Assembly: GCF_003224335.1 (NCBI RefSeq)
Contig: NZ_QKLF01000002.1
Coordinates: forward strand, 1 to 64,000
DNA: 64,000 bases
Direction: 5' to 3'
DNA from: Curtobacterium sp. MCJR17_055
GTDB taxonomy: Bacteria > Actinomycetota > Actinomycetes > Actinomycetales > Microbacteriaceae
The notes under the pieces are model-generated. The model was not told where the DNA came from. It made no database searches and saw nothing but the letters and a program-made list of their open reading frames with translations. This document shows positions 1-35,193 of this stretch, one piece after another (position 1 is the first letter of the stretch; each line of letters begins with the position of its first letter). Position numbers and translations under genes: made by a program.

Positions 1-59
<59 letters not shown>

Positions 60-82
60 CGGCGCCCTCCAGGCAGACGGAC

Positions 83-16266: not shown

Positions 16267-16383
16267 CCGGCGGGCCGCGGCGTCGGCGGGCTCGGATCGG
16301 CGGCGGCCGGCGGCCTGGGCAGTCGGCAGCCTCGGCGGTCGGGGCCTCGGCGGGAGCCGCCCGGGCGGTCGATCTGGGCGCGG

Positions 16384-16426
16384 AACCGACAGATCAGCCC
16401 GGGACTTCCGCGGTGATCTGTCGGTT
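16384..16426. terminator. 13-bp perfect inverted repeat between convergent genes
   Basis: AACCGACAGATCA and TGATCTGTCGGTT pair perfectly around a 17-base loop. It lies in the 292-base gap between the kinase stop (16266) and the EssC-like stop (16559), so a bidirectional terminator is the simplest reading. The stem is markedly more AT-rich than its surroundings and unlike the GGAGGCCCG family. The rest of the gap is GC-rich filler with no gene. Confidence 0.6.
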
Positions 16427-16558
16427 TGATGCCTGGGTCCGGCTCTGGCCTCGGCCGCGGCCGCGCGCCGGGCCGGCCGGCCAGTCGCGCCCGGCCGCCG
16501 GGCCGTGCTGGCCCGTCCGGGCTGGGCCGGGCGGCTGTTCCGAGGTGGGCGGAGGGGA

Positions 16559-20848: not shown

Positions 20849-20948
20849 GCTCGCTCCTCCTGGTCCGTGCGGTGGGGCGGGTACCGGCGGTCCGGTTGCC
20901 CGTCGTCTGGGGTGCCGGCGACTCGTGCGCCGGTGCGCCGGTGCGTGG

Positions 20949-22301
20949 TCAGCGAGCGGTGGAGTCCTGGAACCACACGAGCGACGCGGTCGGTTCCGCG
21001 GTCGCCGGTCGGAGCCCGAGGGTCTGCGACGAGGCTGCGAGGACCGTCGCATCCGTCCGGAGTGCCTGCTGCTGGCGGAAGTCGAGCGCAGGTCCTGCGA
21101 TCCCGTCGCCGGCGTCCAGACGCAGAGTGGCGAGCGCGTCGGTCACATCGGACGGGTCGTCGCTGCGAGCCGAGCCGACGGCTCGCACCAAGGCCACGAC
21201 CGCGTCATGGCTCCGCGAGTCAGCAGCCCAGGCCACCGCGGAGAACGGCTGGTCCGCGGTGAGGTTCTGCGCATCCGGGTCGTCAGCGAGCACCCGGACG
21301 CCGCCGAGGAACGCCGACATCGCACGGCCCTGCTCGTCGGAGGTGAGCGCACGCGCGTCGTCGGTCGCGACGCCCGCGGAGACGAACGTGCCCGACAGGC
21401 TGCCGTTCGCGTCGGCGAGCGCGGTGCCGAACGCCGGACTGGTCGCCTGCGGGGTGAGGACGACGGGCACCGTCACGTCCGCGGACTGCAGGGCGGCGAC
21501 GAACGCCCCCTGTCGAGCCGCCGAGCCGCTGACGACGACCGCGTCCGAGTCCGCCGGAGCGGGGGCATCGGCCTGGTCGTCACCGGCTGCGGGCGTGGCG
21601 TCCGCCGTCACGGCACCGGTCCGCTCGGCGACGGTCGTCGCGAGCGCGGTGTCGTCGGCGGCGGCATCCGCGGTGAGCACGTGGGCGACCTCCAGCCCGG
21701 AGGGCGCACCGCCGCCGAGGTCGACCAGCAGCGGGGAGTCAGCGCCTCGGAGCGCGCGTTCCATGGCGGCGGTCGTGGAGGCCGGCGACGGCGCCGTCGA
21801 CCACGAGTCGCTGCCACTGGATGCGTACGGGAGGACGACCGGCACCCCGGCGTCGGCGGCGGCCTCGAGCGCGCCGGAGACGTGCGCACCGGACGAGGCG
21901 ACCACGATGCCCGAGACGCCGCTGTCGACGAGTGCCTCGACGGCACGCTCCCCACCGCCGGCGCTGCCGCCGTCGTTCCGCGTCACGAGTTCGACGTCCG
22001 TCCCGCCCAGCGTGAGACGACGTTCCGCGACGAGGGCACCTTGCGCCGCTTCGTCCCAGTCGGCCCCCTCGCCGTCGCCGAGCGTGACGACCACACCGAT
22101 CTTCGTGCCCTCGGGCACATGGGCGACCCGGATCGGGACCGGCACGGTCGCCGGGACGGCCTCGGCCGCGGGCGTGTTCCGGTCGACCACGAACACCACG
22201 ACCGCGAGGACCACCGCGATGACGAGCACCGCGATTGCGACGATCACGAGCGGCTGGCGCGGCCGCCGGTCGTGCTGCATGTCGTCGACGGCGTGAGTCA
22301 T
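20949..22301 (-). CDS. membrane-anchored periplasmic-binding-like protein in the T7SS locus
   Basis: A 450-residue protein with a short cytoplasmic N-terminus, one membrane helix (residues about 18-40, LVIVAIAVLVIAVVLAVVVF) and an external two-lobed domain resembling type 1 periplasmic-binding proteins (LivJ/LivK-like): VGVVVTLGDGEG-like opening, ALVDSGVSGIVVASSG, and VTVPVVLTPQATSPAF. No ABC transporter genes are nearby. Its ATG overlaps the stop of the EsaA-like lipoprotein gene as ATGA, and the EssC-like gene follows 100 bases later, so it is part of the secretion operon. A structural or recognition role at the channel is an inference. Confidence 0.7.
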   Translation of the reverse strand: MTHAVDDMQHDRRPRQPLVIVAIAVLVIAVVLAVVVFVVDRNTPAAEAVPATVPVPIRVAHVPEGTKIGVVVTLGDGEGADWDEAAQGALVAERRLTLGGTDVELVTRNDGGSAGGGERAVEALVDSGVSGIVVASSGAHVSGALEAAADAGVPVVLPYASSGSDSWSTAPSPASTTAAMERALRGADSPLLVDLGGGAPSGLEVAHVLTADAAADDTALATTVAERTGAVTADATPAAGDDQADAPAPADSDAVVVSGSAARQGAFVAALQSADVTVPVVLTPQATSPAFGTALADANGSLSGTFVSAGVATDDARALTSDEQGRAMSAFLGGVRVLADDPDAQNLTADQPFSAVAWAADSRSHDAVVALVRAVGSARSDDPSDVTDALATLRLDAGDGIAGPALDFRQQQALRTDATVLAASSQTLGLRPATAEPTASLVWFQDSTAR

Positions 22302-25105
22302 CGTGTGCCCCCGATGGTGAAGGTGTACAGCGTCGTCGAGGTCGCGCTCTCCGGCACGTCCATCCGGAACGCCGGCAGAGTGGTCGCCGCGTCGAGCGAT
22401 GCGCGGAACTGCTCCTGCTGGAGGAGGATGCCCGCCACGTCCTCGGCGCGCACGTTGGCGTACCCAGCTGCGTTCTGCGAGGCCAGGGCGAGCTGGTAGT
22501 CGGCGGAGTCGGACTTCGCCGCGCTCGTCGCCATCGCGCCGAGGATGCCGGAGCCGTTGACCTTGCGGTCGCCCAGGTCGAGCATCACGCGGTTGAGGTC
22601 TCCGGTCAGCAGCGTGCTCGCGCCCTCGACGTCGCGGGTCGACGCCGTGGTGCTCGCGTCGATCCGCGCCAGGCTCTGCTTCGTCTGCTCGTCCACTGCG
22701 GTCGCGAGGGCCGAGTTCTCCCGCTCGAGCTTGCCGCGCTGCTCGTCGATCGTGCCCTTGGCTCCGGATGTCACCTGCTTCGACGTCGAGCGGAGGCCGG
22801 CGATCGACTGGTCGAACGCCTTCAGCACGGCGGCGTTGCTGGTTCCGGCCTGCTCCGACACTTCGCGGACCTGCTCGTCGATGAGCTCGTCGATCTTCTC
22901 CGCTGTATCGTCGTTCGCCTTGGCAAAGGCGTCCTTCACCTTCTGGCCCAGGGACTCCTGCTCGTCACGGACCGAGGTCAGTGCCGTCGCAAGCTTGTCT
23001 CCGGCTTCGTTCGCGTCGTCGACCGCGGTCTGCATCTGCTCGACCGACGACGTCACGTCGCCGCCGCTCGTGCTGATGCTGTCGTACACCGCACGACGAG
23101 CGTCTTCGATCGTGCGAAAACGATCGCGCAGCTCGCGGGTCGCGGCGCCGAGACCGGCCGTCTCGTCATCGAGGTCCGTGGCCTTGATCAACTCGTCCCA
23201 GGCGACAGACTGGTCGGCGAGACGTGCGTCCATCGGCTTGTCGAACGGGATCGCCGTGTCCAGCTTGGCACCGTCACCCTCGTCGACGCACGGTGTCGCC
23301 GTCAGGTACGAACGGAGTTCGTCGGCTTGCTGCTCGGTGAGACCTGGTCCGACCGGCAGCGATGGGACGATACCACCGTCATCGGTGGGCACGACCATCT
23401 GGCAGATCCGTTCCGCGAGCGCCGCATTCTGCGCTTGCATAGTCTTGGAAAGGCGCGGGTCGCCGATGTTCCCGATGACGCCCCGAGCGGCCTTGGCACG
23501 ACCATGCACAGCGACGATCTTGTCGCTGAGGTCCTTCACACCGACGCCCGCGACCCGGACTGCCTCCTCGAGAGCGTCCAGCTGCTGTTTGACCGTTGCC
23601 GTGCCATTCCCCGAGCGCGTTGAGAGCGCGTCGAGAGCCGTCTGCACCTCGCCCAGCCCCGTGTCCACCTTCCCGTATTCATTGATGGCGGCCTCCGCCA
23701 AGTCGGGCTGCAGACCGTTTGCCAGATCGGCGCCGGTCTTCACCAGTCCGGCGAGCGCCTCCGTGATGCTGGTCGACGACGAGAACAGTGCGCACGTCAG
23801 GGAGAAGCGGGCGGTCTCGACGGCGCACTTCTCTGCCGTTGGTTCGCGGGGGCCGATCGAGGACGCGAGCTGGTCGCTGACCTGCTGCTTGCACTCCTCG
23901 CTCGCCGTCGCGTACCCCTCCAACTGCGACGACACCCGCAGGAGGTTGCCGTAGACGCTCGCGCCACCATCCGCCTGCTGCGGAGCTGCCGCGCAGCCCT
24001 CGCCGTCGATCGCCGGACGGGGAGCGGTGGCGGAGGTGTCACCGAGCAACGCGTCGAGGCTCGTGGTCGTCTCCTGCAGCTGCTGCAAGACAGTGGACTG
24101 CGTTGCACCGACCGTCGAGCCGAGGTCGGACTTCAACGAGCCGAGCTGGCCGGACAGCGATTTCATCGTGCTGGCGAGCGAGGTGCTGCTCTCCTTGAGC
24201 CGGTCAGCCGTCCGGACACCGAGTGTGGACGACGTCGTCTCGAGGTTCGACCGGACCTCGGTGATCGTGCTCCCGGCGCGCGCGAGCACCTCGTTCACCT
24301 GCGAGATGAGGTCGATCGTGCGCCGCTGCAGCGCCAGTTCGGAGTCGGTGTCGGACCCGAAGGCCGCGTTCACCACACCGGTCGAGGACAGGTCGGTCGA
24401 GATGCCCGGCTGCGCGGCCAGGTCGAAGGTGGGTGCCGCGAAATCGTCGACGTTCGCCACCAGGTGCAGGGTCGTGCTCGCTCCCGACATGGGCGGCGCG
24501 AGCAGGCGTCCCCACTGCACGACGGCATCGCCGTCACCGTTCGCGCTGACGACACCGTCGGTCGCGGTGCCGTCGTCAGCAGTCTCGGTGACGACACTGT
24601 TCGGTCGGGTACCCGGCAGCACCGTCGACGCGGCGATGCTGAAGGGAGCGCCGACGAGCGCCGGCGTCGTCCGGGAGGCCCCGGCCACGTCGTAGGTCAA
24701 GTTCCGCGATCGGACGGTCAGGTTCTCGACGGTGAGGTCGATCTCGACCCGGCCGGAGTAGCCCGCCAGGTCCGCGAGGTCGGTTCCGCTCTTCTTCGCC
24801 GTCGTGTACTGCGTGGTCACGCGCAACGGCAGGTCACCCGCGGCCTTCGCCGCCTCGTGCTCCGTGACGGAGGACGACGAGTCGTCCGCGCCGACCGAGA
24901 TGGCGGTGTCGGAGATCGTGGTGATCGACCCGTCCGCAGCGAGGCGCGTGTCCACGGTCTGCAGGACGCGAGACGGGCTCTCCACCGCGCGATCCGTGGA
25001 CGTGCACCCCGCCAGGACCACCGCAGCAGCGCCCGCCATCGCGACAACGGCGAGCGCACGGCCGTTCTTCGTTCGTACCCCTGGATGCAGCATGCGCAAC
25101 GACAT
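22298..25105 (-). CDS. large coiled-coil lipoprotein, EsaA/YhgE-like
   Basis: A 935-residue exported lipoprotein. The signal peptide ends in a lipobox VVLAGC with the modified cysteine at residue 34. After a beta-rich region of about 220 residues come long helical segments rich in Ser, Thr, Ala, Glu and Gln (VNEVLARAGSTITEV, QLGSLKSDLGSTVG, SLGQKVKDAFAKANDDTAEK), typical of extended coiled coils. Several cysteines occur in the middle. The layout recalls the external stalk of EsaA/YueB in T7SSb, but EsaA has membrane helices at both ends while this has only a lipid anchor. GAGGGGG precedes the ATG at 25105; an in-frame ATG four codons later is possible. It is coupled to the binding-like protein gene. 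Confidence 0.7.
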   Translation of the reverse strand: MSLRMLHPGVRTKNGRALAVVAMAGAAAVVLAGCTSTDRAVESPSRVLQTVDTRLAADGSITTISDTAISVGADDSSSSVTEHEAAKAAGDLPLRVTTQYTTAKKSGTDLADLAGYSGRVEIDLTVENLTVRSRNLTYDVAGASRTTPALVGAPFSIAASTVLPGTRPNSVVTETADDGTATDGVVSANGDGDAVVQWGRLLAPPMSGASTTLHLVANVDDFAAPTFDLAAQPGISTDLSSTGVVNAAFGSDTDSELALQRRTIDLISQVNEVLARAGSTITEVRSNLETTSSTLGVRTADRLKESSTSLASTMKSLSGQLGSLKSDLGSTVGATQSTVLQQLQETTTSLDALLGDTSATAPRPAIDGEGCAAAPQQADGGASVYGNLLRVSSQLEGYATASEECKQQVSDQLASSIGPREPTAEKCAVETARFSLTCALFSSSTSITEALAGLVKTGADLANGLQPDLAEAAINEYGKVDTGLGEVQTALDALSTRSGNGTATVKQQLDALEEAVRVAGVGVKDLSDKIVAVHGRAKAARGVIGNIGDPRLSKTMQAQNAALAERICQMVVPTDDGGIVPSLPVGPGLTEQQADELRSYLTATPCVDEGDGAKLDTAIPFDKPMDARLADQSVAWDELIKATDLDDETAGLGAATRELRDRFRTIEDARRAVYDSISTSGGDVTSSVEQMQTAVDDANEAGDKLATALTSVRDEQESLGQKVKDAFAKANDDTAEKIDELIDEQVREVSEQAGTSNAAVLKAFDQSIAGLRSTSKQVTSGAKGTIDEQRGKLERENSALATAVDEQTKQSLARIDASTTASTRDVEGASTLLTGDLNRVMLDLGDRKVNGSGILGAMATSAAKSDSADYQLALASQNAAGYANVRAEDVAGILLQQEQFRASLDAATTLPAFRMDVPESATSTTLYTFTIGGTR

Positions 25106-25271: not shown

Positions 25272-25511
25272 CTACGCCGATCGCGAGAACGTCAGCACCA
25301 GCGCGCCGAGCTCGCTCTGGAGAGGCCAGGAGTCCGCGACCGTCCGTCCGGCCTCCCGCACGATCGACCGGGAAACTGGACTCCCCTGTTCCTGCGCCAG
25401 AGCACGGGCGAGGACCGACCGCACCGCATGGATCTGTTCGGCTGAGGCTGCGTCCTCAGCGCCGCGCCGGTCCAGGGTGTCGATCAGGTCAAGCAAGCTC
25501 ATGTCGTCCAT
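25272..25511 (-). CDS. small hypothetical protein in the T7SS locus
   Basis: A 79-residue, mostly helical, charged protein starting MDDMSLLDLIDTLDRRG. It has no membrane segment, signal peptide or WxG motif. I do not recognise a family. The start is uncertain: a second ATG three codons later and upstream in-frame codons exist, and no strong ribosome site is visible. It lies 166 bases before the EsaA-like lipoprotein gene and just after the array of small membrane proteins. Confidence 0.45.
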   Translation of the reverse strand: MDDMSLLDLIDTLDRRGAEDAASAEQIHAVRSVLARALAQEQGSPVSRSIVREAGRTVADSWPLQSELGALVLTFSRSA

Positions 25512-25636
25512 CCGGTCGCGTCCGCGCAGACCATGCGGCGACCTCAAGAACGACGGCATCCGAGGAGTCCCGGCGAAGCGCCGAATCTGCGCGACTGAGC
25601 CCTCACCTCGAGGGAGCCGTCACTCCTGAAAGGCCA

Positions 25637-26068
25637 TCAACAGCTGCAGGCCCCTGTCACGGTTCCGCCGAGAAACCGAAGACGACCCACCTTCTCGCGC
25701 ACGCGAACGAGGGCCTCCCGGTGTCGGAATGATGCTTCGCCGATCTGGAACCGAGTCGAGCCTCCTGCTTCGAGCCTCGAGGCGATCGCGTCTTTGTTGT
25801 CGGCCGTCACGCCCCGCCTGAGGACGAGCGGACCACATTCCTTCGTCATGATCGCGACCTGGTCGAACGACGATCCGATTCCCTTACCGGAAGCGCTCGA
25901 CCCGATGTCTCCTTCGGCACCCGTCACGGTGCACATGACGGAGATCACGTGCGCGTCGTCGTAGGCCTTCCACGCCCGTGAGCCCCCGAGGACCAGCGCG
26001 GTGACAAGCACCATCGCGCTCAACATCGAGATCACCAGCACGTTCCCGCGGCGCCGTTTCGCTCCCAC
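25637..26068 (-). CDS. small membrane protein, YDxAH family paralogue 5 (putative immunity protein)
   Basis: A 143-residue member of a tandem family. The N-terminus is basic (VGAKRRRGN), followed by one membrane helix (VLVISMLSAMVLVTALVL) and an external domain of about 110 residues. The shared motifs are AYDDAH, then a cysteine (VMC), GKGIGSSFDQV, a second cysteine in ECGPLVLRRGVTADN, and SRLEAGGSTRF. The two cysteines are likely to form a disulfide outside the cell. The GTG at 26068 has AAGGAG upstream; an ATG pair at 26101-26104 is the alternative. Being last in the array downstream of an Rhs gene suggests immunity, which is inference. Confidence 0.65.
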   Translation of the reverse strand: MGAKRRRGNVLVISMLSAMVLVTALVLGGSRAWKAYDDAHVISVMCTVTGAEGDIGSSASGKGIGSSFDQVAIMTKECGPLVLRRGVTADNKDAIASRLEAGGSTRFQIGEASFRHREALVRVREKVGRLRFLGGTVTGACSC

Positions 26069-26154
26069 GTTGCTCCTTGTCGATGTCCCGCCGGGGACCA
26101 TCATCGTCGTAGCCCTCTGCCGGCCGCCGGATCGGTCCCATTGCATGGCGCGGC

Positions 26155-26604
26155 TCACCTTCCACGCTCGGCTCGCACATCGAGCACATTGGGTGCGACG
26201 CCGACCGCTTGGAACCATCCCCGCAGGCGTGCAGACCCTTGACCGATCTTGACGTCGTAACGCTCCCCGCCCACGACTCCAGATGCTTTCTCCTCGGCTG
26301 CCTCGGCGGTGAGCCCTCCACTCAATACAAGCGTTCCACAATCCGGTGACCGGTACTCCACCTGGTTGGACGATGTGCCAACTCCCTGCAACGACCGACT
26401 TGAAGCGGAGCCGGCGTAGGCCGCCGTCACCTTGCAGTTGATCGTCGTGATGTGTGCGCGGTCGTAGTTCTCGAGCATCGCCGGCCCGATCGCGAACACG
26501 AAGAGCACGAGCATGAAGAGCGCCATCACGAGCAGCAAAACCAACCATCGCATCGGCCTCGACAACCTCCGCCCGCTGACCATCGACTGCCCGGAAAGCT
26601 CCAC
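26155..26604 (-). CDS. small membrane protein, YDxAH family paralogue 4 (putative immunity protein)
   Basis: A 149-residue paralogue with a basic N-terminus, a long hydrophobic helix (LVLLLVMALFMLVLFVFAIG) and the family domain: NYDRAH, cysteine in INCKV, QGVGTSSNQV and DCGTLVLSGGLTAEA. The usual GVTADN is altered to GLTAEA, so it has diverged from the others. The GTG at 26604 follows AGGAGG closely. It lies 86 bases before paralogue 5, on the same strand as the Rhs gene. Confidence 0.65.
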   Translation of the reverse strand: MELSGQSMVSGRRLSRPMRWLVLLLVMALFMLVLFVFAIGPAMLENYDRAHITTINCKVTAAYAGSASSRSLQGVGTSSNQVEYRSPDCGTLVLSGGLTAEAAEEKASGVVGGERYDVKIGQGSARLRGWFQAVGVAPNVLDVRAERGR

Positions 26605-26776
26605 GTTTCCTCCTCTACTCGGTTACTCCCCTTGCCGTCGACTTCAGCGACGCGCCTCATGCACGTCGTCGATCAGGACACCGACCTTGCGTTCGCCTGC
26701 ATGACCATAATCACCACGACGAACACCAATCGTCGCCGCTGACCTTTCCCGCTTCCGCTGTTCACCGCGTCCGGCG

Positions 26777-27191
26777 CTAGTGCACCTTCACGACCGCTGG
26801 AGTTCGCAGGACGCGAAGCACGCTTCGGAAGGACGCCTCTCCCATCTCGAACTCGTACTGCTGCCCGGCTCGAACTTCCGTGCGATCACATTGCGGTTCT
26901 TCGCAGTCACTCCACTTCGCACGACGAGCGCCCCGCGACAGACGGAGCGCACCACCACCCGGTCGTAGGACACTCCACGCCCCTCCCCGAGGTGGATGAC
27001 CGCACCCCGCCCTCTGCTGAGATGACCCTGCCTCGCACGGCGATCGGATGTGTCCGGTCCCAGGCAGAGCCCCCGACTTGCACCACCAGGATCATGATCG
27101 GCATGAGCGCGAAGCGCCAGAACCCGGATCGCGCGCCTTCGCTTCGTGCTCCTCGTCGGAGGAACACCGTCAGGCACCCTGGTCCCACCAT
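26777..27191 (-). pseudogene. broken YDxAH family paralogue 3
   Basis: Pieces of the family domain lie in successive frames. The first gives a hydrophobic helix (FALMPIMILVVQVGG), WDRTHPIAVRGRV and SSTSGRGV; the second SYDRVVV, VCRGALVVRSGVTAKNRN and KFEPG; the third QQYEFEMGEASFRS ending at 26777. Each joint needs one missing base, at a short G run near 26967 and another near 26861, and a further shift near the N-terminus is possible. The first conserved cysteine is replaced by arginine. Either the gene has decayed or G-run indels were miscalled. Confidence 0.6.
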
Positions 27192-27215
27192 TCCTTATTC
27201 GTCGCCCGGCCGTCT

Positions 27216-27506
27216 TCAGTCAGCGGCTCCGTCGGTGACGCTACGCATCCCAAATGCAAGGGTCAGGGCCAGGGCAGGGCGAAGAATACGACCACGATCC
27301 CTGAGTTCCAGATTGCCGCGATCCGGGCCGTCCGGGCCATCTGGCTCGTTAGTCGCCGACGGTGTGGACTCAGCCGCTGAACATCTCCCAGGCAGCGTCG
27401 CCGATACCTCGGACAGCGACGCCGGACGCATTCGAGCCCCAAAAAAGCGACCCTGCTGCTGCGTACTGAACAGTCCGTCAGCGGTTTGTGGCTGCGTATG
27501 AGGCAT
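27216..27506 (-). pseudogene. possible decayed small gene in the immunity-like array
   Basis: A 96-codon frame starts MPHTQPQTADGLFSTQQQ at 27506 and has a Gly-Pro-Asp repeat (EPDGPDGPD). An alternative frame over the same bases contains a membrane-helix-like stretch (IAAIWNSGIVVVFFALPW) just where the family would be expected to cross the membrane. This suggests compensating frameshifts, but I cannot decide whether any version is expressed. The remaining bases from 27192 to 27553 show nothing else. Confidence 0.3.
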
Positions 27507-27553
27507 CTTCCCCAACTGTCGTCGGCTGTCACCCCTCGGCGGACGACGAGGGT

Positions 27554-28027
27554 TCAGGCTCGTTGGAAGTCCTGCACGAAGACCGCCTGACGGATGGTGT
27601 TCAGGAAGGGGTGCAGCCGGTACGAACCTGCACCGACATTGAACTTCCACGTCGTCCCGGGCGCGAAGCCGTCGGTGATTGATTCTTTGTTGTCCCTCGT
27701 CACGCCCCAGCGCAACGTCAACGTCCCGCAGCCAGAAGTCTCGATCACGACCTGATTGGTCGATGAACCGATGCCCCTGACCGAGTGCGACGAACCAACG
27801 CCGATCCGTGCCGAGAGCACTTTGCACGACACCTCGACCCGATGAGCCGCGTCGTAGACCTTCAGCGTGATCGGGCCGACGAAGATCACGAGCACTGGGA
27901 CCAGGACGACCAGGACGACCAGGACGACCAGGACGACCAGGACGAGGATCCCGATCGCGACGAGACGATCACGTCGCTTCGAGCGACTCGGCTTCCCACT
28001 GGCATCGGTCTTCGTGAATACCGCCAT
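27554..28027 (-). CDS. small membrane protein, YDxAH family paralogue 2 (putative immunity protein)
   Basis: A 157-residue paralogue. A basic N-terminus (SGKPSRSKRRDR) leads to an unusually long hydrophobic segment of about 30 residues built on repeated VLV units, encoded by six perfect 9-bp repeats. The external domain has VYDAAH, cysteine in VSCKV, RGIGSSTNQV, SGCGTLTLRWGVTRDN and FAPGTTWKF. GAGGGGAACGACC before the ATG at 28027 supports that start. Repeat changes would lengthen or shorten the helix three residues at a time without a frameshift. The immunity role is inferred from its position after the Rhs gene. Confidence 0.68.
   Translation of the reverse strand: MAVFTKTDASGKPSRSKRRDRLVAIGILVLVVLVVLVVLVVLVPVLVIFVGPITLKVYDAAHRVEVSCKVLSARIGVGSSHSVRGIGSSTNQVVIETSGCGTLTLRWGVTRDNKESITDGFAPGTTWKFNVGAGSYRLHPFLNTIRQAVFVQDFQRA
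27901..27954 (-). repeat. six perfect 9-bp repeats inside a membrane-helix coding segment
   Basis: The unit CCAGGACGA (plus strand) is repeated six times without change. On the coding strand each copy encodes three hydrophobic residues (Val-Leu-Val). It is a slippage-prone microsatellite that keeps frame. Confidence 0.9.
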
Positions 28028-28309
28028 GGTCGTTCCCCTCGCCGTTCGGATCAGCGGCGAACTGGGTGCAGCGGACCTGTTCGTCCGCTCGCGCCAGAGA
28101 TCGCGCCGTTGATCCCGTCCTGCAGATAGTCTCGTGGATCCTTCCGAACGAGCACGTCGTTCACCACGCCGCCCGCCCCTCCCGCGACGTGGTCGACGAC
28201 GGTGCTTCACCGGGCGACGTCCCGAGCCATGGCGTGGTCGCCGCTCTGGATGTGTCGTCCGGTGGGGATGGGAAGCCGGACCAAGCGGCGACCTCGGCGC
28301 AACAAGACA

Positions 28310-28677
28310 TCAGCGCCTCGTCGCCTCTCGAGTACGAAGAGACCTGAGATGCCCTCCGAGCACTGCGCTGCCGAAAGCACTCAGGATGTAGCTGGGGATG
28401 AGGACCAACCAGATTCCGCCGATCTGGCGACTGATGAACATCAGAGCAATCATCGAGATCACCAGCACCGGCGTACCGATGCTCGCGCGGCAGAGATAAA
28501 AACCCCTCCGATGAAGATCAGACCGCCAGCGGCACCGGTCAGTGCGACGGGGAGAACGCCGCCAACGCGATCACCGACGGAAATAACGGGGAACAAGACT
28601 GCCGCCAGTACCGCAACAGATGCCAAAACGAGCGCACTTGACTGCTGGAAAGTGCCAGAGTCAAGCTTCGGACTCAT
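28310..28677 (-). pseudogene. frameshifted multi-pass membrane protein gene
   Basis: The first 67 codons from ATG 28677 encode a membrane protein (ALVLASVAVLAAVLFPVI, VALTGAAGGLIFIGGVFI) that runs into a stop just after AARASVRRCW. Shifting by one base near 28479 restores a long hydrophobic continuation (IGTPVLVISMIALMF, GGIWLVLIPSYILSAF) ending GGHLRSLRTREATRR at 28310. One missing base therefore appears to split a roughly 120-residue, four-helix protein. It is unrelated to the YDxAH family. It is either a real mutation or a sequencing indel. Confidence 0.55.
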
Positions 28678-28802
28678 CGTGCCGTTCCGATCCCGAAAAT
28701 ATCACGAATTGATCCTGGTCCCACCCCGGTCGCCACCCCAAGGTGGCCGACTTACTGAGTCGCTCAGCGCTTTCTCCTCGACTGAGCAGCGCTCCACTCG
28801 CT

Positions 28803-29225
28803 TCAAGCACGACGGTAGGAGAGCAACTCAGGCGAGGCCCCGAACAGCTTCAACAAACCGCGCACCTTGAGCGATCCATCCCCGGCCTCGAACTCGTACT
28901 CAGCTCCGGTCTCGAACCTGGATGCAACGTCGCGGCTGTTGTCCGCAGTGACGCCGGTGCGCAACACGAACTTGCCGCAATCGCTCGACTCGATGACGAC
29001 TTGCGGGATGGACGCGCCGACCCCTTTCGCCGAGCGAGTGGAACCGGTGCTCGCTTTCGCGGAGGAGACCTCACAGGTCAACGTGACGTTGTGCGCGTTG
29101 TCGTATGACCGAAGCACCGCGGGGCCAGCGAGGAAGAACGCACTCACGAAGACGATCAGGAAAGCCCAGAGCAGGAACAATACCCATGCCTTGGTCTTCG
29201 ACATCTTCCGTCTCGCTGCAGTCAC
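28803..29225 (-). CDS. small membrane protein, YDxAH family paralogue 1 (putative immunity protein to the Rhs protein)
   Basis: A 140-residue paralogue directly after the Rhs gene, 48 bases from its stop. A basic N-terminus (TAARRKMSKTK) precedes one membrane helix (AWVLFLLWAFLIVFVSAFFL). The external domain has SYDNAH, cysteine in LTCEV, KGVGASIPQV, DCGKFVLRTGVTADN and SRFETGAEYEFEAGDGS. The GTG at 29225 has GGGAG upstream at good spacing; a TTG at 29240 and an ATG at 29204 are alternatives. As the first gene after the toxin candidate it is the best guess for the cognate immunity protein, but no known immunity family was recognised. Confidence 0.7.
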   Translation of the reverse strand: MTAARRKMSKTKAWVLFLLWAFLIVFVSAFFLAGPAVLRSYDNAHNVTLTCEVSSAKASTGSTRSAKGVGASIPQVVIESSDCGKFVLRTGVTADNSRDVASRFETGAEYEFEAGDGSLKVRGLLKLFGASPELLSYRRA

Positions 29226-29273: not shown

Positions 29274-32200
29274 TCAGCCAGCGGAGTGAACGGGCTTCGT
29301 CGGCCCCTCCCCGCCGGACACAGCACCTCCGAAGAACGTTGTGCCGAAGTCCTGCGCGACACCGTCTCCGCCCGGGCGGACGGCCTCGTTCACGACAGCA
29401 CCGACCCCACCGACGAAGCGGTCGGTGATGTCACCCGTCACGGCGTTCCACCGCGAGACGGCGCTGGGCAGCTCATGTCCGACCCATCCTTCGGGGACAT
29501 CCGGGCCGATCGGCAGCTTCGAGACGAGAGGGCTGAGAGCGCTTGATGCAACGCTCGTTCCTGCGCCCACCCCGAACCCAGTCGCGGCGGCATTTACGTA
29601 CCCCAAGGCGCTCTTGTCAGTGATCTGCGGGTCGATCGCATAGCTCCCGACGTTCGACGTTGCCCCCGAAAGCCCCGACGCAACGGCAGCCCGACCTGTC
29701 GAGCCAATGGCTGTGGTCGCTGCTTGGCGGAGGGCAGGCTGCGAGATCCGAGCAATCTGCGGCGTGACGGCTTGCGTGATCTTCGGAGCCCACTGTGCAA
29801 GCTTCGCCGCGGCGCCACCGCCGACCGCCCCGGCGACTCCCCCGATCACGGTGTCCAATCCGACCGCACCCCAATCAACCCTGCCGTCAGCTCCCTTGTT
29901 CGACTGGATCGAAAGCCCGCCGGAGAGGGCGGCTCCTGCACCAGCCGCCATCGCGATCGCGACGATTGGCCCGACCGGGGTCACCATCGACGCGATCGTC
30001 AGCCCGATCCCGACGCCGACCGCCACAGCTGCGATCTCGTCGGCGTGCTCATCCGCCCAGTCCTTGAGACCGCCCTGGTGCGCATCCCGGTACGCCTGCA
30101 GGTCCTTGTCCGTCGCCGGCCGCAGCCCGAGCGGGTCGACCGCGTGCAGCGGGTCGTTCCCCGCGTACGAGTAGGGGTTCCCCGACCACCCAGCTCCGAC
30201 GACCGGCGCGAGCGGGTCCGTCGACAGGAAGCCCTTCGCCACGGGGTCGTACACCCGTGCCCCGAGCCACTCCATCCCCCCGATGCTCAGGCTTCCGCCC
30301 GGGGTCAGCCCGACTCCGGACGGCAGCGCAGCGCCGCCGTCGATCCCGCTCGTCGATGCGAGGAGCGCCCAGGGATCGGTCGCGTCGGTCGCACGCGCCC
30401 CGCGCCAGTTCCCTGCTGTCCAGCTCCCGTCGACGGCGAGGATCCCGCCCGGGGCTTCCAGCACCGGCGTCGCGCCGACCGAGGTCAGGACCGGGACACC
30501 TGCTGCGGTGTCCCACCAGGTGTCGACTCCTCCGACTTCCGCGACCTCGCCCAGAGCGTCGGTCCACACCTCGAGCCGGCCGGTCTCGTCGTACGTCGCG
30601 TCCCGCTCGAAGACTCCGGCCAGGAACCCGAGGTCCGACCAGGCGTACTCGGTGGTCGAACCGTCCGGAGCAGTCCGCCGGACGCGCCGTCCGAGTCCGT
30701 CGTGCACGTACTCGGTCCGCGCACCGTCAGCACCGGTGGTGGCGACGAGTTGCCCGGCAGCGTCGTACTCGTGCCGGAGTTCCGCATCGTCGACGGTCTC
30801 GGCGACGAGGCGTCCTGCTGCGTCGTACCGCCAGGTCCGACCACGGCCGCCGTCGTCGAGTGCGCTGACGAGTTGCGCCGCGGCGTCGTGGACGTAGGTC
30901 CGGTGACCGTCCGCGCCGGTGATCGCCGCGATGCGGTCGTCCTCGTCGTGGTCGATGCGGGTCGTCGTGCCACCCTCCGGCGTGGTCACGGTGTGTTCGA
31001 CGAGCGACCCGCGCTCGTACGACCACGACTGGACGACGTCACCGGTCGAGGCCTGGACGATGCGCCCGAGGGTGTCCAGGGTGAACGCGGCGGGCGCGAG
31101 TCCTTCCCGTTCGACGCCGACGACGCGGCCGGCGGCGTCCCTGCGCCATGTCGTGCGGTTGCCGTCGGGGTCCGTACGGGCAGCACGACGGCCGTCGACG
31201 TCGTACTCCCAGGACATCGCCTGCCCGCCCCGGCTCCGCCGGACGAGCAGACCCCGCCGGTCGAAGCACAGCTCGTGCTCGATGTCCCGACCAGGGCCAC
31301 GCGTGTGGTCGGTGACGACGACGGTCCGTCGAGCTCTGTCGTGCGCGGTCTCCGCCACGAGGGCGCCGTCCACAAAGATCCGCTGTTCACGTCCTGCTGC
31401 GTCGTACGCCCACTCGACGACCCCGCCGTCGGGGTCCGTCTGCTGGATGCGGCGACCGGCGTCGTCGAGTCGTGCGGTGGTCGTCCTGCCCAACGGATCC
31501 GTGATGCCGATCAGCCGTCCGGCAGCGTCGTAGGCGTACCGGGTGACACCACCCACCGGGTCGGTCGCGCTGGTCAGGCGCCCGTCGGCGTCGTACGTGT
31601 AGGCGGTCACTCCGCCCAGGCCGTTCTCGGCCTCGACGAGCTGGCCCGCGGCGTCGTAGCGGAACCGACGTCGACCGTGACGTGCGTCGTGGACGGAGAC
31701 GAGCCTCCCGGCCGCGTCCCAGCGGTAGCGAGCCGTTCCTTCTCCGGGTGCGGTCCGCGCGACGACGCGTCCGACGACGTCGTACTCGATGCGCTCGACG
31801 TCACCCGTCGGCAAGATCCGCGCGACGACCCGTGAGTCTGCGTCGTAGGTGATCGTCGTCCGCGCCCCGAGTGGGTCGGTGGCGGCCGAAGGCCGGCCAC
31901 AGGCGTCGTACTCGTAGGTCGTCCGCCCACCGCTCGGCGACGTGATCGCGCTGATCCGGCCACTCGGGTCGCGCTCGATACGGGTGAGGCCACCCTCACC
32001 GTCCACCAGCTCGACCGGTCGGCCACAAGCGTCGTACGTCACGAGTTCGGAACCGGTCTCGTCGGACGTCACCTCGACGGGCCGTCCGAACTCGTCGGAC
32101 CGGACGGTGGTCGTCGCGAACGCGTCCGACAACGTGGAGATGCCAGTGGCCGGGTCCTCCGAGAACTCCTTGCGGACTCCGGTGGGGTCGGTCACGGCGT

Positions 32201-34667
32201 GCAGGTCGCCGTTGACCCCGTACTCCCGGCGCCACACTGCGCCGGTGGGGTCGACGACGGACTGGAGGCGCGACAAGGCGTCGTGCGCGAAGGTCCAGGA
32301 CGCGCCGCTCGGCAGGGTGACCTGCAGCGGGTTGGCCTGGTCGTCGTAGGTCCGGCGGGTGGTCCGTCCGAGCGCGTCGGTCGTGGAGGCGAGTTCACCG
32401 TCCGCCCCGTAGGCGAGGACGGTCCGCGCATCGATCGGGTCGGTCACGGCGCTGACGCGTCCACCCGCGGTGTACTCGACCGTCCACGTCGCGCCGTCGG
32501 GGTCACGGCGAGCGACGACCTGACCGGCGGCACCGTAGCGGTACTCCGTGCGGGCGCCGGTGGGGCTGATGGTCGCGACGGCGTGACCGGCGGCGTCCCG
32601 CTCGATCCGTGCGACGTGCCCGGCAGCGTTGGTCACGGCGACGAGCTCGCCCGACGCGTCGTGGTCGAGGCTGAGCGTGACACCGGTGGGGTCGACGACC
32701 CGGAGGAGCAGGCCGTGGTCCCACGTGAGTTCGGTTCGTCCGCCCATCGGGTCGATGACGACCGACGGGTCACGCTCGTCACCGTCGTACTCGTACGTGA
32801 CGACGCTGCCGCTCTCCGTGACCACGGTCGTGACGCGGTCGGCGTCGTCGTAGCCGTACGTCAGGTCCCCACCGGTCGGCGTGACCGTCCGCGTACGGCG
32901 GCCTCGCGCGTCGTAGGCGTGCACGGTGACCGAACCGTCGCGTTCCGTCGCTGACACGAGGTTGCCGTGCGGGTCGTAGCTCATCGACTGTCGACGGTCA
33001 TCCGAGTCGATGATCCCGACGAGTCGACCCTTCGGGTCCGCGATCCAGGCGTTCGAACGCGTCCCGTCCTGGTCGGAGACCACGGTCACGCGGCCGGGGA
33101 GGTAGGCGAACCGGACTCGGCGGCCGTGCGGGCTGGTCTGCTCGACGACACGACGCTGCGCGTCGTACACGTTGTCGACCTCGAGCACGCCGTCGGCACT
33201 CGTGACCGTCACGATGAGGTCGTCCTCGTCCCAGCCGTACGTCCTGGTCCCGAGCGGGGTCGCGGCCGAGACCAGGCGCCCTCGGTCGTCGTACCCGTAC
33301 TCCACCCGACGTCCGTCGGAGGCCCGCAGCACGGCGACACGACCGTCGACGTACTCGATGTCCACGAAGCGACCGCGTTCGTGGCGGAGACGCACGACGG
33401 CGTCGGAAGCGTCCCGTTCCACCGCCACGGCTGTTCCGGGTCCGGCGCTCTCGCCGACCCAGAGACCAGTCGGGGTGAAGTCGATACGACCACCCTCGTT
33501 GTCCCGCACGACCAGGAGGTCTGCCTCCGTCGTGAGCCACCGGTTCTCGCCGACGCCGCGCGCCCAACCGGTGCCGGCCCGGGGGAAGCGGACGAGCCGG
33601 CCGTCGGCACCGACGAAGGACGCGCCCTCGTCGTCGAGGAGCAGGCGGGTCTCGAGGACGGACGCCCACCCCGGGCCGAAGACCCCGACCCGCTGGTCGA
33701 GGGAGTTGTACATGCGCGAGACCCTGAGGGACGCGGATGCGCCGTCGAAGGAGAGGTCGAGCTCTGGCTCGAGGAAGTTGCCGGTCGTCGTGTTGACCGG
33801 GTCCATCGAGTAACCGGTCGTCGGCTGCGCGCCGTAGGCGGTGGGCGGATCGATCTGCAGGTCGGTCCGGTTGGCCGACACGCCCGCGGCCTGCAGAGCT
33901 GCGCCGAGCGCTGCGTCGGACACGGTCGAGACCGCGCCTTCACCCCCGGCGGCGGCGAAGGCGTCGGCGATGGTCTTCGCCCAGGCGACGTCCTGGTCGT
34001 TGGCTGCGAGCCACCGCTCGAAGCCGGTGACGAGCCCGTCCGCGTTGATCGTGCCCCAGGAGCACAGGGACGCGAAGTCGGACAGCTTGCCCCGGAGCAG
34101 CCCGGGCTTCCCGGACAGCTCGGAGTTCAACGACGCCGAGCCCGTGGCGAAGGACCGGAGGTCTTCCGGCTTCGCGGACGACGTCCCGCCCCCGCCGCCG
34201 CCGGAACCCGGGGAAGGCGTCTGCCTCGGCTTCGGCTGCATCTCCGCGGGGCCGAACGGAGGCGCGGGCTTGTTCTCGATGTCCGGCGGGTTCCCGGTGC
34301 CGAACGTGTCGTCCCACCACTTCTCGAACCCGTTGCGTTCAGCCTGCTGCTCCTGCCACTCACGGGCCTGGCGACGCCGTTCGCGTTCTTCTGCGGCGAG
34401 CTTCTTCATCTGGTCGACCCACCCCGCGACCGTGCGCATCAGGTCTGAGAGGGTCGTACCGTCGCTCTTCGCGATCGTCGCGTTCTCGGTGAACAGCTGC
34501 GAGAAGTGGCCGCGGAACTCCTGCGAGGCCGTCGACACGTACGACTGACGACTCCCGATCTGACCGTCGATCGCACTCGCCGCGCCGCGCATGGCGCTGG
34601 CGAGCGCATCAGCGGTGGCGTCGTCGAACTCGATCGGATCGGTGTTGGCGTGCAGCTGTCCTGACAC
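29274..34667 (-). CDS. Rhs/YD-repeat protein, T7SS-associated polymorphic toxin candidate
   Basis: A 1797-residue protein. The first 110 residues form a helical hairpin-like region without WxG (EFRGHFSQLF), fitting T7SS export domains. A Pro/Gly-rich linker and a DUF6531-type segment (DPVNTTTGNFLEPELDLSF) near residue 289 follow. Dozens of YD repeats (YDAAGRLV type) fill about 420-1450, and the Rhs core closes with VYDPVAKGFLSTDPLAP near 1480 and NDPLHAVDPLGLRP near 1514. The last 280 residues are Ala/Gly-rich and hydrophobic (AAVAVGVGIGLTIASMV, IVAIAMAAGAGAALSGG) with no recognised nuclease. The GTG at 34667 follows GGGGGGA. A membrane-active tip is an inference. Confidence 0.85.
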   Translation of the reverse strand: MSGQLHANTDPIEFDDATADALASAMRGAASAIDGQIGSRQSYVSTASQEFRGHFSQLFTENATIAKSDGTTLSDLMRTVAGWVDQMKKLAAEERERRRQAREWQEQQAERNGFEKWWDDTFGTGNPPDIENKPAPPFGPAEMQPKPRQTPSPGSGGGGGGTSSAKPEDLRSFATGSASLNSELSGKPGLLRGKLSDFASLCSWGTINADGLVTGFERWLAANDQDVAWAKTIADAFAAAGGEGAVSTVSDAALGAALQAAGVSANRTDLQIDPPTAYGAQPTTGYSMDPVNTTTGNFLEPELDLSFDGASASLRVSRMYNSLDQRVGVFGPGWASVLETRLLLDDEGASFVGADGRLVRFPRAGTGWARGVGENRWLTTEADLLVVRDNEGGRIDFTPTGLWVGESAGPGTAVAVERDASDAVVRLRHERGRFVDIEYVDGRVAVLRASDGRRVEYGYDDRGRLVSAATPLGTRTYGWDEDDLIVTVTSADGVLEVDNVYDAQRRVVEQTSPHGRRVRFAYLPGRVTVVSDQDGTRSNAWIADPKGRLVGIIDSDDRRQSMSYDPHGNLVSATERDGSVTVHAYDARGRRTRTVTPTGGDLTYGYDDADRVTTVVTESGSVVTYEYDGDERDPSVVIDPMGGRTELTWDHGLLLRVVDPTGVTLSLDHDASGELVAVTNAAGHVARIERDAAGHAVATISPTGARTEYRYGAAGQVVARRDPDGATWTVEYTAGGRVSAVTDPIDARTVLAYGADGELASTTDALGRTTRRTYDDQANPLQVTLPSGASWTFAHDALSRLQSVVDPTGAVWRREYGVNGDLHAVTDPTGVRKEFSEDPATGISTLSDAFATTTVRSDEFGRPVEVTSDETGSELVTYDACGRPVELVDGEGGLTRIERDPSGRISAITSPSGGRTTYEYDACGRPSAATDPLGARTTITYDADSRVVARILPTGDVERIEYDVVGRVVARTAPGEGTARYRWDAAGRLVSVHDARHGRRRFRYDAAGQLVEAENGLGGVTAYTYDADGRLTSATDPVGGVTRYAYDAAGRLIGITDPLGRTTTARLDDAGRRIQQTDPDGGVVEWAYDAAGREQRIFVDGALVAETAHDRARRTVVVTDHTRGPGRDIEHELCFDRRGLLVRRSRGGQAMSWEYDVDGRRAARTDPDGNRTTWRRDAAGRVVGVEREGLAPAAFTLDTLGRIVQASTGDVVQSWSYERGSLVEHTVTTPEGGTTTRIDHDEDDRIAAITGADGHRTYVHDAAAQLVSALDDGGRGRTWRYDAAGRLVAETVDDAELRHEYDAAGQLVATTGADGARTEYVHDGLGRRVRRTAPDGSTTEYAWSDLGFLAGVFERDATYDETGRLEVWTDALGEVAEVGGVDTWWDTAAGVPVLTSVGATPVLEAPGGILAVDGSWTAGNWRGARATDATDPWALLASTSGIDGGAALPSGVGLTPGGSLSIGGMEWLGARVYDPVAKGFLSTDPLAPVVGAGWSGNPYSYAGNDPLHAVDPLGLRPATDKDLQAYRDAHQGGLKDWADEHADEIAAVAVGVGIGLTIASMVTPVGPIVAIAMAAGAGAALSGGLSIQSNKGADGRVDWGAVGLDTVIGGVAGAVGGGAAAKLAQWAPKITQAVTPQIARISQPALRQAATTAIGSTGRAAVASGLSGATSNVGSYAIDPQITDKSALGYVNAAATGFGVGAGTSVASSALSPLVSKLPIGPDVPEGWVGHELPSAVSRWNAVTGDITDRFVGGVGAVVNEAVRPGGDGVAQDFGTTFFGGAVSGGEGPTKPVHSAG

Positions 34668-34773: not shown

Positions 34774-35055
34774 TTACGCGCCGCCACCCGCGGTGAAGAT
34801 GTCCTGCGAGATCTTGTCGAGCTGCGTGCGGAGCTGCTCGAGCTCCGTCTTCGCCTTGTCCAGCGCAGCCTTGGTCTCCGGCCACGTCGAACCACGGAAG
34901 TTCGACGCCAACGGGCCGTCCCACACGTTCGAGTCGGACAGGATGCGCCCCTGCGCATCGAGCTGCGAGATCTGGTCCGTGAACCCACCGTTCACGATGG
35001 ACTGGATCTGACGGATGGCGGTCTTCGCCTGCTCGGTCGAAAGCACACGCGACAT
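34774..35055 (-). CDS. WXG100 family protein (EsxA-like)
   Basis: A 93-residue helical-hairpin protein of the classic T7SS substrate family. The WxG turn is WDG in SNVWDGPLASNF, central in the chain and flanked by two amphipathic helices (EQAKTAIRQIQSIVNGG and ALDKAKTELEQLRTQLDKI). No signal peptide is present, as expected. GAGGGG lies upstream of the ATG at 35055. It is the first gene of the minus-strand secretion locus, 106 bases before the Rhs gene, and probably acts as secretion partner or chaperone for it. No YxxxD/E export tail was seen. Confidence 0.88.
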   Translation of the reverse strand: MSRVLSTEQAKTAIRQIQSIVNGGFTDQISQLDAQGRILSDSNVWDGPLASNFRGSTWPETKAALDKAKTELEQLRTQLDKISQDIFTAGGGA

Positions 35056-35193
35056 GGTGAACCCCTCTTCTCTTCGTACCTGCACCCCCGCGCAGAAGAT
35101 CCCCCGGAGGCTCTGACGCGCACCACCATACCGAGTCGTCCACCCGCTCGTACCCTCCTGTGCACAGCTGATCCGCCGTCCCGACGACTGCCC

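What the first reader, a model, noticed from the sequence alone, without database searches (positions are those of the whole stretch)
25637..29225. Tandem family of single-pass membrane proteins (YDxAH family) behind an Rhs protein: candidate new immunity array
Five paralogues (28803-29225, 27554-28027, 26777-27191 broken, 26155-26604, 25637-26068) share a basic N-terminus, one helix, Y-D-x-A-H, two cysteines (except the broken copy) and G-V-T-x-D-N. They follow the Rhs gene on the same strand. Arrays of diverged immunity genes are a known hallmark of polymorphic toxin loci, but I recognise no described family here. External placement and a likely disulfide suggest they block a toxin at the outer membrane face.
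Basis: partly seen in the sequence, partly recalled or inferred. Interest (0 to 1): 0.9.

Follow-up and report, generated by a model that had tools for sequence, protein, structure and literature searches.

The report
Antidote gene array behind Rhs toxin
An actinobacterium carries, next to the gene of a large secreted toxin-like protein, a row of related membrane-anchored proteins that are very probably antidotes, one for its own toxin tip and others apparently kept against the tips of relatives; the antidote family looks new, the kind of system is known.

Summary
The array is real: four intact paralogues and a broken one follow an Rhs gene in a type VII secretion locus. The immunity reading is well supported by comparative genomics; toxicity is untested. 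In 66 genus genomes the window's Rhs C-terminal type ('type A') occurs in 21 full-length copies in 20 genomes, each directly followed by a YDxAH gene; none of the 24 genomes without YDxAH genes has one. In loci chosen for YDxAH genes, 20 of 20 type-A tips have the gene 3-71 bp downstream, 12 of 12 other tips only 428-2939 bp away. Type A outside the genus (3 genomes found in the family sample) shows the same pairing. Four orphan YDxAH genes, one in the window, still carry a decayed type-A tip in front; in 4 of 4 the tip and the gene have their best match in the same living pair elsewhere. So the array holds one cognate antidote and displaced orphans. No curated family matches. One helix, an outside domain and two cysteines suggest neutralisation at the outer face of the cell membrane. 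The toxin's action is unknown; a glycine-rich membrane toxin is my weakly supported guess. Kind of system: known (Rhs tip displacement, orphan immunity; Listeria LrhA/LrhI is close in layout). Family: apparently new.

The parts
29274..34667 (-). Rhs gene (start near 34667 inferred; the ORF is open to 34988)
   Evidence: RHS repeats, DUF6531, Rhs core
29274..30122 (-). Type-A C-terminal tip, 282 residues, proposed toxin
34774..35058 (-). WXG100-like gene
   Evidence: TIGR03930 E 0.0009, below its cut-off; conserved in most array loci
28803..29225 (-). I1, proposed cognate antidote
   Evidence: 48 bp after the Rhs stop
28313..28677 (-). Broken polytopic membrane gene
   Evidence: two pieces in two frames, relatives in L041, L049 and in part L064
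28066..28269 (-). Decayed type-A tip with a stop inside
   Evidence: E 9.4e-11, 1.8e-12
27554..28027 (-). I2, proposed orphan antidote for the G001-type tip
26777..27191 (-). I3, broken copy
26155..26604 (-). I4, proposed orphan antidote, partner tip not found
25637..26068 (-). I5, proposed orphan antidote; a relative is cognate in L040
   Evidence: 65% identity to the L040 gene next to its Rhs
25272..25559 (-). Small ORF found again in several array loci
22298..25105 (-). 935-residue envelope-type protein of the locus
20949..22301 (-). 450-residue membrane-anchored protein, weakly like a periplasmic binding protein
16559..21052 (-). FHA-FtsK/SpoIIIE ATPase of T7SS type
14128..16266 (+). Ser/Thr protein kinase beside the ATPase

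Best explanation
The array is the immunity side of a polymorphic Rhs toxin linked to a type VII secretion system. The Rhs protein ends in a type-A tip, read here as an antibacterial toxin domain. I1, directly behind it, is the cognate antidote; I2, I4 and I5 are orphan antidotes that came with other type-A tip alleles, and I3 is a dead one. Mode of action proposed: one helix holds each protein in the cytoplasmic membrane, with a small OB-like domain outside (two cysteines, probably a disulfide) that binds its own tip allele as it arrives and stops it acting on or in the membrane. New tip-antidote pairs enter behind the conserved core and push older pairs downstream, where the tip decays and the antidote is kept. 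Shown by computation: family, topology signal, pairing with type A, allele matching of decayed tips, low dN/dS. Inferred: toxicity, secretion, binding, extracellular site, disulfide, membrane target, order of insertion.
For: 42 of 66 genus genomes have YDxAH genes; the 20 genomes with a full-length type-A tip (21 copies) are all among them, and 0 of the 24 without YDxAH genes has one (Fisher 1.5e-5, shared ancestry not corrected). Place: 20 of 20 type-A tips have the gene 3-71 bp downstream, 12 of 12 other tips 428-2939 bp; two more type-A and one more non-A locus agree. Directly behind 11 of 12 non-A tips an ORF scan finds other genes. Outside the genus, type A was found in 3 genomes of 3 genera, each with the gene 81-95 bp beyond the tip match. 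In genome G512 of another family 3 of 4 type-A pieces directly precede or overlap a YDxAH-like ORF, the fourth lies 0.49 kb before one. Co-divergence: tip end versus adjacent protein r 0.37, P 1e-4, 0.38 given the Rhs core; non-adjacent array members mean 0.01, 0 of 500 as high as the adjacent; with near-duplicates removed (17 left) r 0.33, P 0.006. Decayed tips: four clear ones before 85 non-adjacent genes, 0 of 105 on the reverse strand; 4 of 4 match the same living pair as their gene. dN/dS 0.16-0.53 in 11 pairs. One predicted helix in 82 of 87, net positive N-terminus in 69 of 82, both cysteines in 79 of 87, no lipobox in 87.
Against: No experiment. The tip gave no usable model (pLDDT 34) and matches no Pfam family, so 'toxin' rests on layout. 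The family also occurs away from Rhs: 9 of 42 genus genomes have only such copies, one clade being a longer protein with an extra module. The adjacency loci were chosen for YDxAH genes; one search is the unselected test. The shared first part of the tip also correlates with the adjacent protein (r 0.27, P 0.007; tip end given that part 0.30, P 0.0016). Nearest neighbours agree in only 9 of 20, eight of them in four close reciprocal pairs. In the L047 case the best antidote match wins by one bit inside one allele group. BLAST clustering of tips after residue 115 put type A and five other tips in one cluster of 25, so type A is set apart by its C-terminal end. Z values of the fold are under 8.
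Confidence: 0.82

Rival explanations
1. YDxAH proteins are partners of the tip rather than antidotes: membrane chaperones or docking proteins that help fold, hold or export type-A Rhs proteins.
For: Strict adjacency to type A and co-divergence would also follow from a dedicated chaperone; the protein is membrane-anchored.
Against: By my count over genus genomes keep copies at the T7SS locus without a full type-A tip; several diverged copies per locus with low dN/dS and copies on plasmids fit antidotes better. The conserved Rhs core and secretion genes occur without the gene next to them when the tip is not type A.
Confidence: 0.08
2. Same immunity role, but the type-A tip is an enzyme acting outside the cell, for instance on lipid II or wall precursors as TelC does, not a membrane toxin.
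For: An outside antidote domain fits any extracellular target; TelC acts from outside and its purified antidote TipC inhibits it (PMC5555719, passages). The type-specific tail has no predicted helix in 20 of 20 and no glycine-zipper excess.
Against: The invariant tail residues over 20 sequences are glycines and the near-invariant ones N, Y, S, G and P, with no catalytic-looking set; glycines conserved in 95% or more include two pairs spaced by four (P 0.004, chosen after the fact; 0.13 at the 75% cut).
Confidence: 0.3
3. The YDxAH domain is a general membrane module with another main role, and its place behind Rhs is hitch-hiking in a recombination hot spot.
For: Stand-alone copies exist, one clade as proteins of about 300 residues with an extra N-terminal module; distant members occur in other families of the order.
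Against: Hitch-hiking does not predict 20 of 20 against 0 of 12 by tip type, nor 4 of 4 allele-matched decayed tips, nor the same pairing in other genera and another family.
Confidence: 0.05

Closest known systems
LrhA/LrhI, Rhs toxin and probable immunity protein of a Listeria T7SSb variant (PMC10327511, passages read)
   Same: T7SS-linked Rhs protein; antidote candidate directly downstream with one membrane helix near its N-terminus and an extracellular globular part; orphan copies in other strains.
   Different: LrhI has 261 residues; here about 140, in tandem paralogues, in an actinobacterial locus, with pairing traced to one tip type and to decayed tips. Sequence relation not tested.
TspA/TsaI and EsaD/EsaG gene strings of Staphylococcus (PMC9484751, abstract and outline seen)
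   Same: Strings of non-identical immunity paralogues for a T7SS toxin.
   Different: Other protein families (recalled: TsaI polytopic, EsaG soluble) and other carriers; no Rhs core.
EsxX with ExiC/ExiD (PMC12744356: abstract, first part of Results, Discussion read)
   Same: T7SS toxin countered from outside by membrane antidotes, which also occur as orphans in strains without the toxin.
   Different: ExiC and ExiD have six predicted helices each; EsxX has a glycine zipper and shown depolarising activity, type A has neither shown.
Rhs C-terminal displacement in enterobacteria (PMC2935791, abstract and outline seen) and orphan Rhs immunity in Serratia (PMC10539506, passages read)
   Same: Conserved core, exchanged tips, arrays of displaced tips, orphan antidotes behind the cognate one.
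   Different: Other bacteria and toxin families, T6SS in Serratia; here tips are alleles of one type and the orphans one protein family.
Tse5/Tsi5 of Pseudomonas (PMC10684867, passages read; Tsi5 as membrane antidote from PMC12744356 Discussion)
   Same: Rhs protein with a membrane-acting C-terminal fragment and a membrane antidote.
   Different: T6SS; pore formation is shown there, only guessed here.

Membership tests
Rhs polymorphic toxin-immunity (CT-I) system | Conserved Rhs core with exchanged C-terminal tips | tested here: met
   Core best segments 65-95% identical across mapped loci while tips differ
Rhs polymorphic toxin-immunity (CT-I) system | Tip-specific gene directly downstream | tested here: met
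   20 of 20 type-A against 0 of 12 other tips; 21 of 21 full-length genus copies
Rhs polymorphic toxin-immunity (CT-I) system | Displaced tips and orphan immunity genes | tested here: met
   Four clear decayed tips, 4 of 4 allele-matched
Rhs polymorphic toxin-immunity (CT-I) system | Tip toxic, antidote neutralises it | not testable with these tools
   Needs expression
T7SS-secreted Rhs substrate | WXG100 partner and EccC/EssC-type ATPase in the locus | tested here: met
   WXG100-like, below the curated cut-off; FHA-FtsK/SpoIIIE; in other loci the ATPase was seen only where the stretch reached it
T7SS-secreted Rhs substrate | Secretion by the T7SS | not testable with these tools
T7SSd variant (PMC11217815, section 9 and passages read) | TsdA, TsdC with FHA, kinase TsdD, TsdH, TsdI | tested here: inconclusive
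   Counterparts of A, C and D by domain; H and I not identified; no sequence comparison with T7SSd made
Polytopic membrane immunity (ExiC/ExiD type) | Several membrane helices | tested here: not met
   One predicted helix in 82 of 87, none in 5; fused stand-alone proteins were trimmed to the domain by my start choice
Glycine-zipper membrane toxins (EsxX, TelE) | Glycine zipper in a membrane-spanning part of the toxin domain | tested here: inconclusive
   Two conserved GxxxG pairs in the tail, but no excess over shuffles (z 0.30) and no helix there in 20 of 20
Curated families of Pfam, NCBIfam, PHROGs, PADLOC | Match clearly above chance or above the family cut-off | tested here: not met
   Window proteins against Pfam and NCBIfam; nine members against PHROGs, PADLOC, NCBIfam; best E 0.0066, single members
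OB-fold proteins (SSB, PriB) | Shared fold | tested here: inconclusive
   Model pLDDT 85.5; Foldseek best E 0.026; best Z 7.9
LrhI | Layout: one N-terminal helix, outside domain, behind a T7SS Rhs gene | tested here: met
LrhI | Sequence homology | not tested

The most novel reading that the evidence does not exclude
The arrays are a readable record of past toxin encounters. Each YDxAH gene answers to one type-A tip allele, so that an array predicts which sibling strains a bacterium survives: the window strain should survive its own tip (I1), the G001-type tip (I2) and the L040-type tip (I5). The tip-antidote pair would be a new, non-enzymatic toxin class caught outside the membrane by a single-pass OB-like antidote, and independent of the Rhs core, since in another family it follows a carrier without YD repeats.
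Probability: 0.4. Interest if true: 0.65.

Novelty: new member of a known kind. Interest (0 to 1): 0.5.

Why it matters
It gives an apparently undescribed antidote family and tip type with a testable pairing rule in actinobacterial T7SS loci. Because decayed tips still stand before some orphan antidotes and match living pairs elsewhere, the targets of orphan antidotes, usually unknown, can be predicted and tested allele by allele. It also adds a single-pass antidote family where polytopic ones are the common case for membrane toxins (as stated in PMC12744356).

Tried and rejected
Housekeeping family: no curated hit. Phage or defence gene: I2 has no match in 50,697 phage records; PADLOC none, PHROGs chance-level. 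Solved structures by sequence: nothing convincing for antidote or tip. Tip structure: unusable with two sequences, so no fold search with it. Glycine-zipper excess over composition: not found in the tail. A weak fifth decayed tip (L044, E 0.0096) was set aside as chance, since the same stretch appears in the downstream control; that control gave 1 of 85 and, after type-A-adjacent genes, 2 of 20, which I did not inspect one by one. L043 showed no ORF directly behind its tip. The GG-spacing scan of the window told nothing. Family, order and phylum searches scored about 10 candidates per genome, so members may be missed; the order search hit 6 of 396 genomes, the phylum search only the window's own of 396. 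Five genomes of the family outside the genus have YDxAH hits without a type-A hit.

Recalled or inferred, not tested: that the stand-alone proteins' RVFPDRLE module resembles a bacterial PH domain (Pfam gave no support); that TsaI is polytopic and EsaG soluble; the genus name Curtobacterium, inferred from 15 of 15 plasmid hits. Papers seen only in search listings are not used as evidence.
Full report
What is there. The window is the start of contig C5 of a 3.29 Mb genome. On the minus strand a WXG100-like gene, an Rhs gene and then the array follow one another; further down lie a 935-residue protein, a 450-residue membrane-anchored protein and an FHA-bearing FtsK/SpoIIIE ATPase, with a Ser/Thr kinase beside it. 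Four YDxAH genes are intact and one is broken.

A conserved locus with an exchanged part. A profile of the four proteins hits 42 of 66 genomes of the genus. I took stretches of up to 20 kb around 40 of the places, plus the C6 copy and one named record, L040, and mapped the window's proteins on them. The order polyphosphate kinase, WXG100, Rhs, variable stretch, 935-residue protein, 450-residue protein recurs, with the ATPase where the stretch reaches it. Rhs N-terminus and core match at 61-99% in their best segments; tips differ after about 90-115 residues. Of 32 tips read to their stop, 20 are type A, the window's kind, by a C-terminal motif (one, L070, is cut short by an early stop and was placed by hand), and 12 are others. 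Plain BLAST clustering of the parts after residue 115 did not separate five of the others from type A; the difference lies in the C-terminal end.

Pairing. A YDxAH gene begins 3-71 bp after the stop in 20 of 20 type-A tips and 428-2939 bp after it in 12 of 12 others (starts chosen by a simple rule). These loci were chosen for having YDxAH genes, so I searched the type-A tail in all 66 genus genomes without that choice: 21 full-length matches in 20 genomes, all of which have YDxAH genes, and none in the 24 genomes without such genes (Fisher 1.5e-5, not corrected for ancestry). One match (G044) has a stop inside and one (G041) belongs to a second, incomplete Rhs gene. Three more genomes have weak or partial matches (G003, G008, G056); all have YDxAH genes. 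The two full-length matches not covered (G025, G027) are also directly followed by the gene, and one further non-A locus (G055) is not. In 398 genomes of the family, type A turns up outside the genus in three, of three genera, each with the gene 81-95 bp beyond the tip match. In another family, genome G512 has type-A pieces and YDxAH-like ORFs in alternation: 3 of 4 pieces directly precede or overlap such an ORF, the fourth lies 0.49 kb before one; the longest piece is fused to an Rhs-type N-terminal domain with no YD core between. Two YDxAH-like ORFs of that genome had no tip in front at E 0.1.

Other tips, other genes. An ORF scan finds, directly behind 11 of 12 non-A tips, candidates with two to four predicted helices (7) or soluble ones of 107-114 residues (4). 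The gene behind the core thus changes with the tip, as expected of immunity genes.

Allele specificity. Distances among tip ends follow distances among the outside parts of the adjacent proteins (r 0.37, P 1e-4; 0.38 given the Rhs core), while core distances do not (r -0.08, P 0.75). The first part of the tip correlates too (r 0.27, P 0.007); given it, the tip end still does (0.30, P 0.0016). On 15 loci with a usable non-adjacent copy, adjacent proteins give 0.42 and random non-adjacent ones 0.01 on average, 0 of 500 as high. With near-duplicates removed (17 left) r is 0.33, P 0.006. Nearest neighbours agree in 9 of 20 against 1.06 expected, eight of the nine in four close reciprocal pairs. 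Decayed type-A tips stand clearly before four of 85 non-adjacent genes: I2 of the window, L047:7255, L074:6491, L078:11540; the reverse strand gave 0 of 105. For each, the best living match of the tip and of the gene behind it belong to the same pair: L041, L077, L061, L056; in the L047 case the gene's best match leads by one bit within one allele group. I read this as displacement of whole pairs with loss of the tip and retention of the antidote, the process proposed for enterobacterial rhs genes (PMC2935791, abstract). Eleven pairs of related copies give dN/dS 0.16-0.53, with dS up to 1.05, so rough.

Copies away from Rhs. Of the 42 genus genomes 33 have the gene at an Rhs/T7SS locus and 9 only elsewhere, by my count over (one of the nine, G065, lies on a 3.8 kb contig and cannot be judged). 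One stand-alone clade, including the window genome's copy on C6, consists of proteins of about 300 residues with an extra N-terminal part: 9 of the 10 ORFs aligned show both parts, the tenth being a wrong ORF choice of mine; of six such or other away or array copies tested, none passed a Pfam cut-off. Orphan copies also lie on 15 plasmid records of 72,556, all Curtobacterium; in the one I opened, the gene, annotated as hypothetical, lies in a stretch with a recombinase and an integrase gene.

How it may work. Of 87 near-full proteins, 82 have one predicted helix, the part before it is net positive in 69 of 82, both cysteines are present in 79 of 87 and a lipobox in none. This predicts the C-terminal domain outside. 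The model of I1 (pLDDT 85.5) is a long helix and a small beta domain, nearest to OB-type proteins but at Z below 8, which may be only a common arrangement. The type-A tail matches no Pfam family, has no predicted membrane helix in 20 of 20 and no excess of glycine-zipper patterns; the first 115 residues, shared by all tip types, have one or two helices. Its best conserved tail residues are glycines with two pairs spaced by four. A membrane-acting toxin caught outside is my best guess for the mechanism, about 0.55; an enzyme acting outside is the main alternative, about 0.3.

Against what is known. Strings of T7SS immunity paralogues (PMC9484751), orphan membrane antidotes (PMC12744356), Rhs orphan immunity (PMC10539506) and a single-pass antidote candidate behind a T7SS Rhs toxin (LrhI, PMC10327511) are in print. 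Literature searches listed no paper on this family; the one paper holding both 'Curtobacterium' and 'type VII secretion' says that no T7SS genes were identified in its strain. So the family and its type-A tip appear new, the kind of system is not.

Noticed in passing
window 28313-28677 (-): Broken polytopic membrane gene between I1 and I2 with relatives in L041 and L049; possibly a dead antidote for a non-A tip.
   Followed up: partly
L009:9527-10438 and relatives L051, L059, L062, L110, L121, L124, L126, L127: Stand-alone YDxAH domains behind an N-terminal part of about 170 residues with a conserved VFPDRLE motif; role unknown.
   Followed up: partly
L144:8801-9859 (-), genome G512: Rhs-type N-terminal domain fused straight to a type-A tip with no YD core, followed by alternating tip pieces and YDxAH-like ORFs.
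   Followed up: partly
L042, L045, L047, L052, L054, L058, L067, L069, L075, L078, L080: Other Rhs tip types of the same locus, each with its own ORF directly behind: further toxin-antidote candidates.
   Followed up: no
window 14128-25105: T7SSd-like gene content (FHA ATPase, kinase, WXG100); 'Microbacteri' does not occur in the main text of the paper that defines T7SSd.
   Followed up: partly
window 25272-25559 (-): Small ORF of 95 residues at the array end, found again in several loci.
   Followed up: no
L056:6616-6951 (-): Truncated YDxAH gene whose end reads, by eye, like the tip end of another toxin type: a likely recombination scar.
   Followed up: no
L149:5980-6396 (+): Orphan YDxAH gene on a Curtobacterium flaccumfaciens plasmid in a stretch with recombinase and integrase genes.
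   Followed up: partly
window 20-60: Run of about 40 G near the start of the contig, probably an assembly artefact.
   Followed up: no
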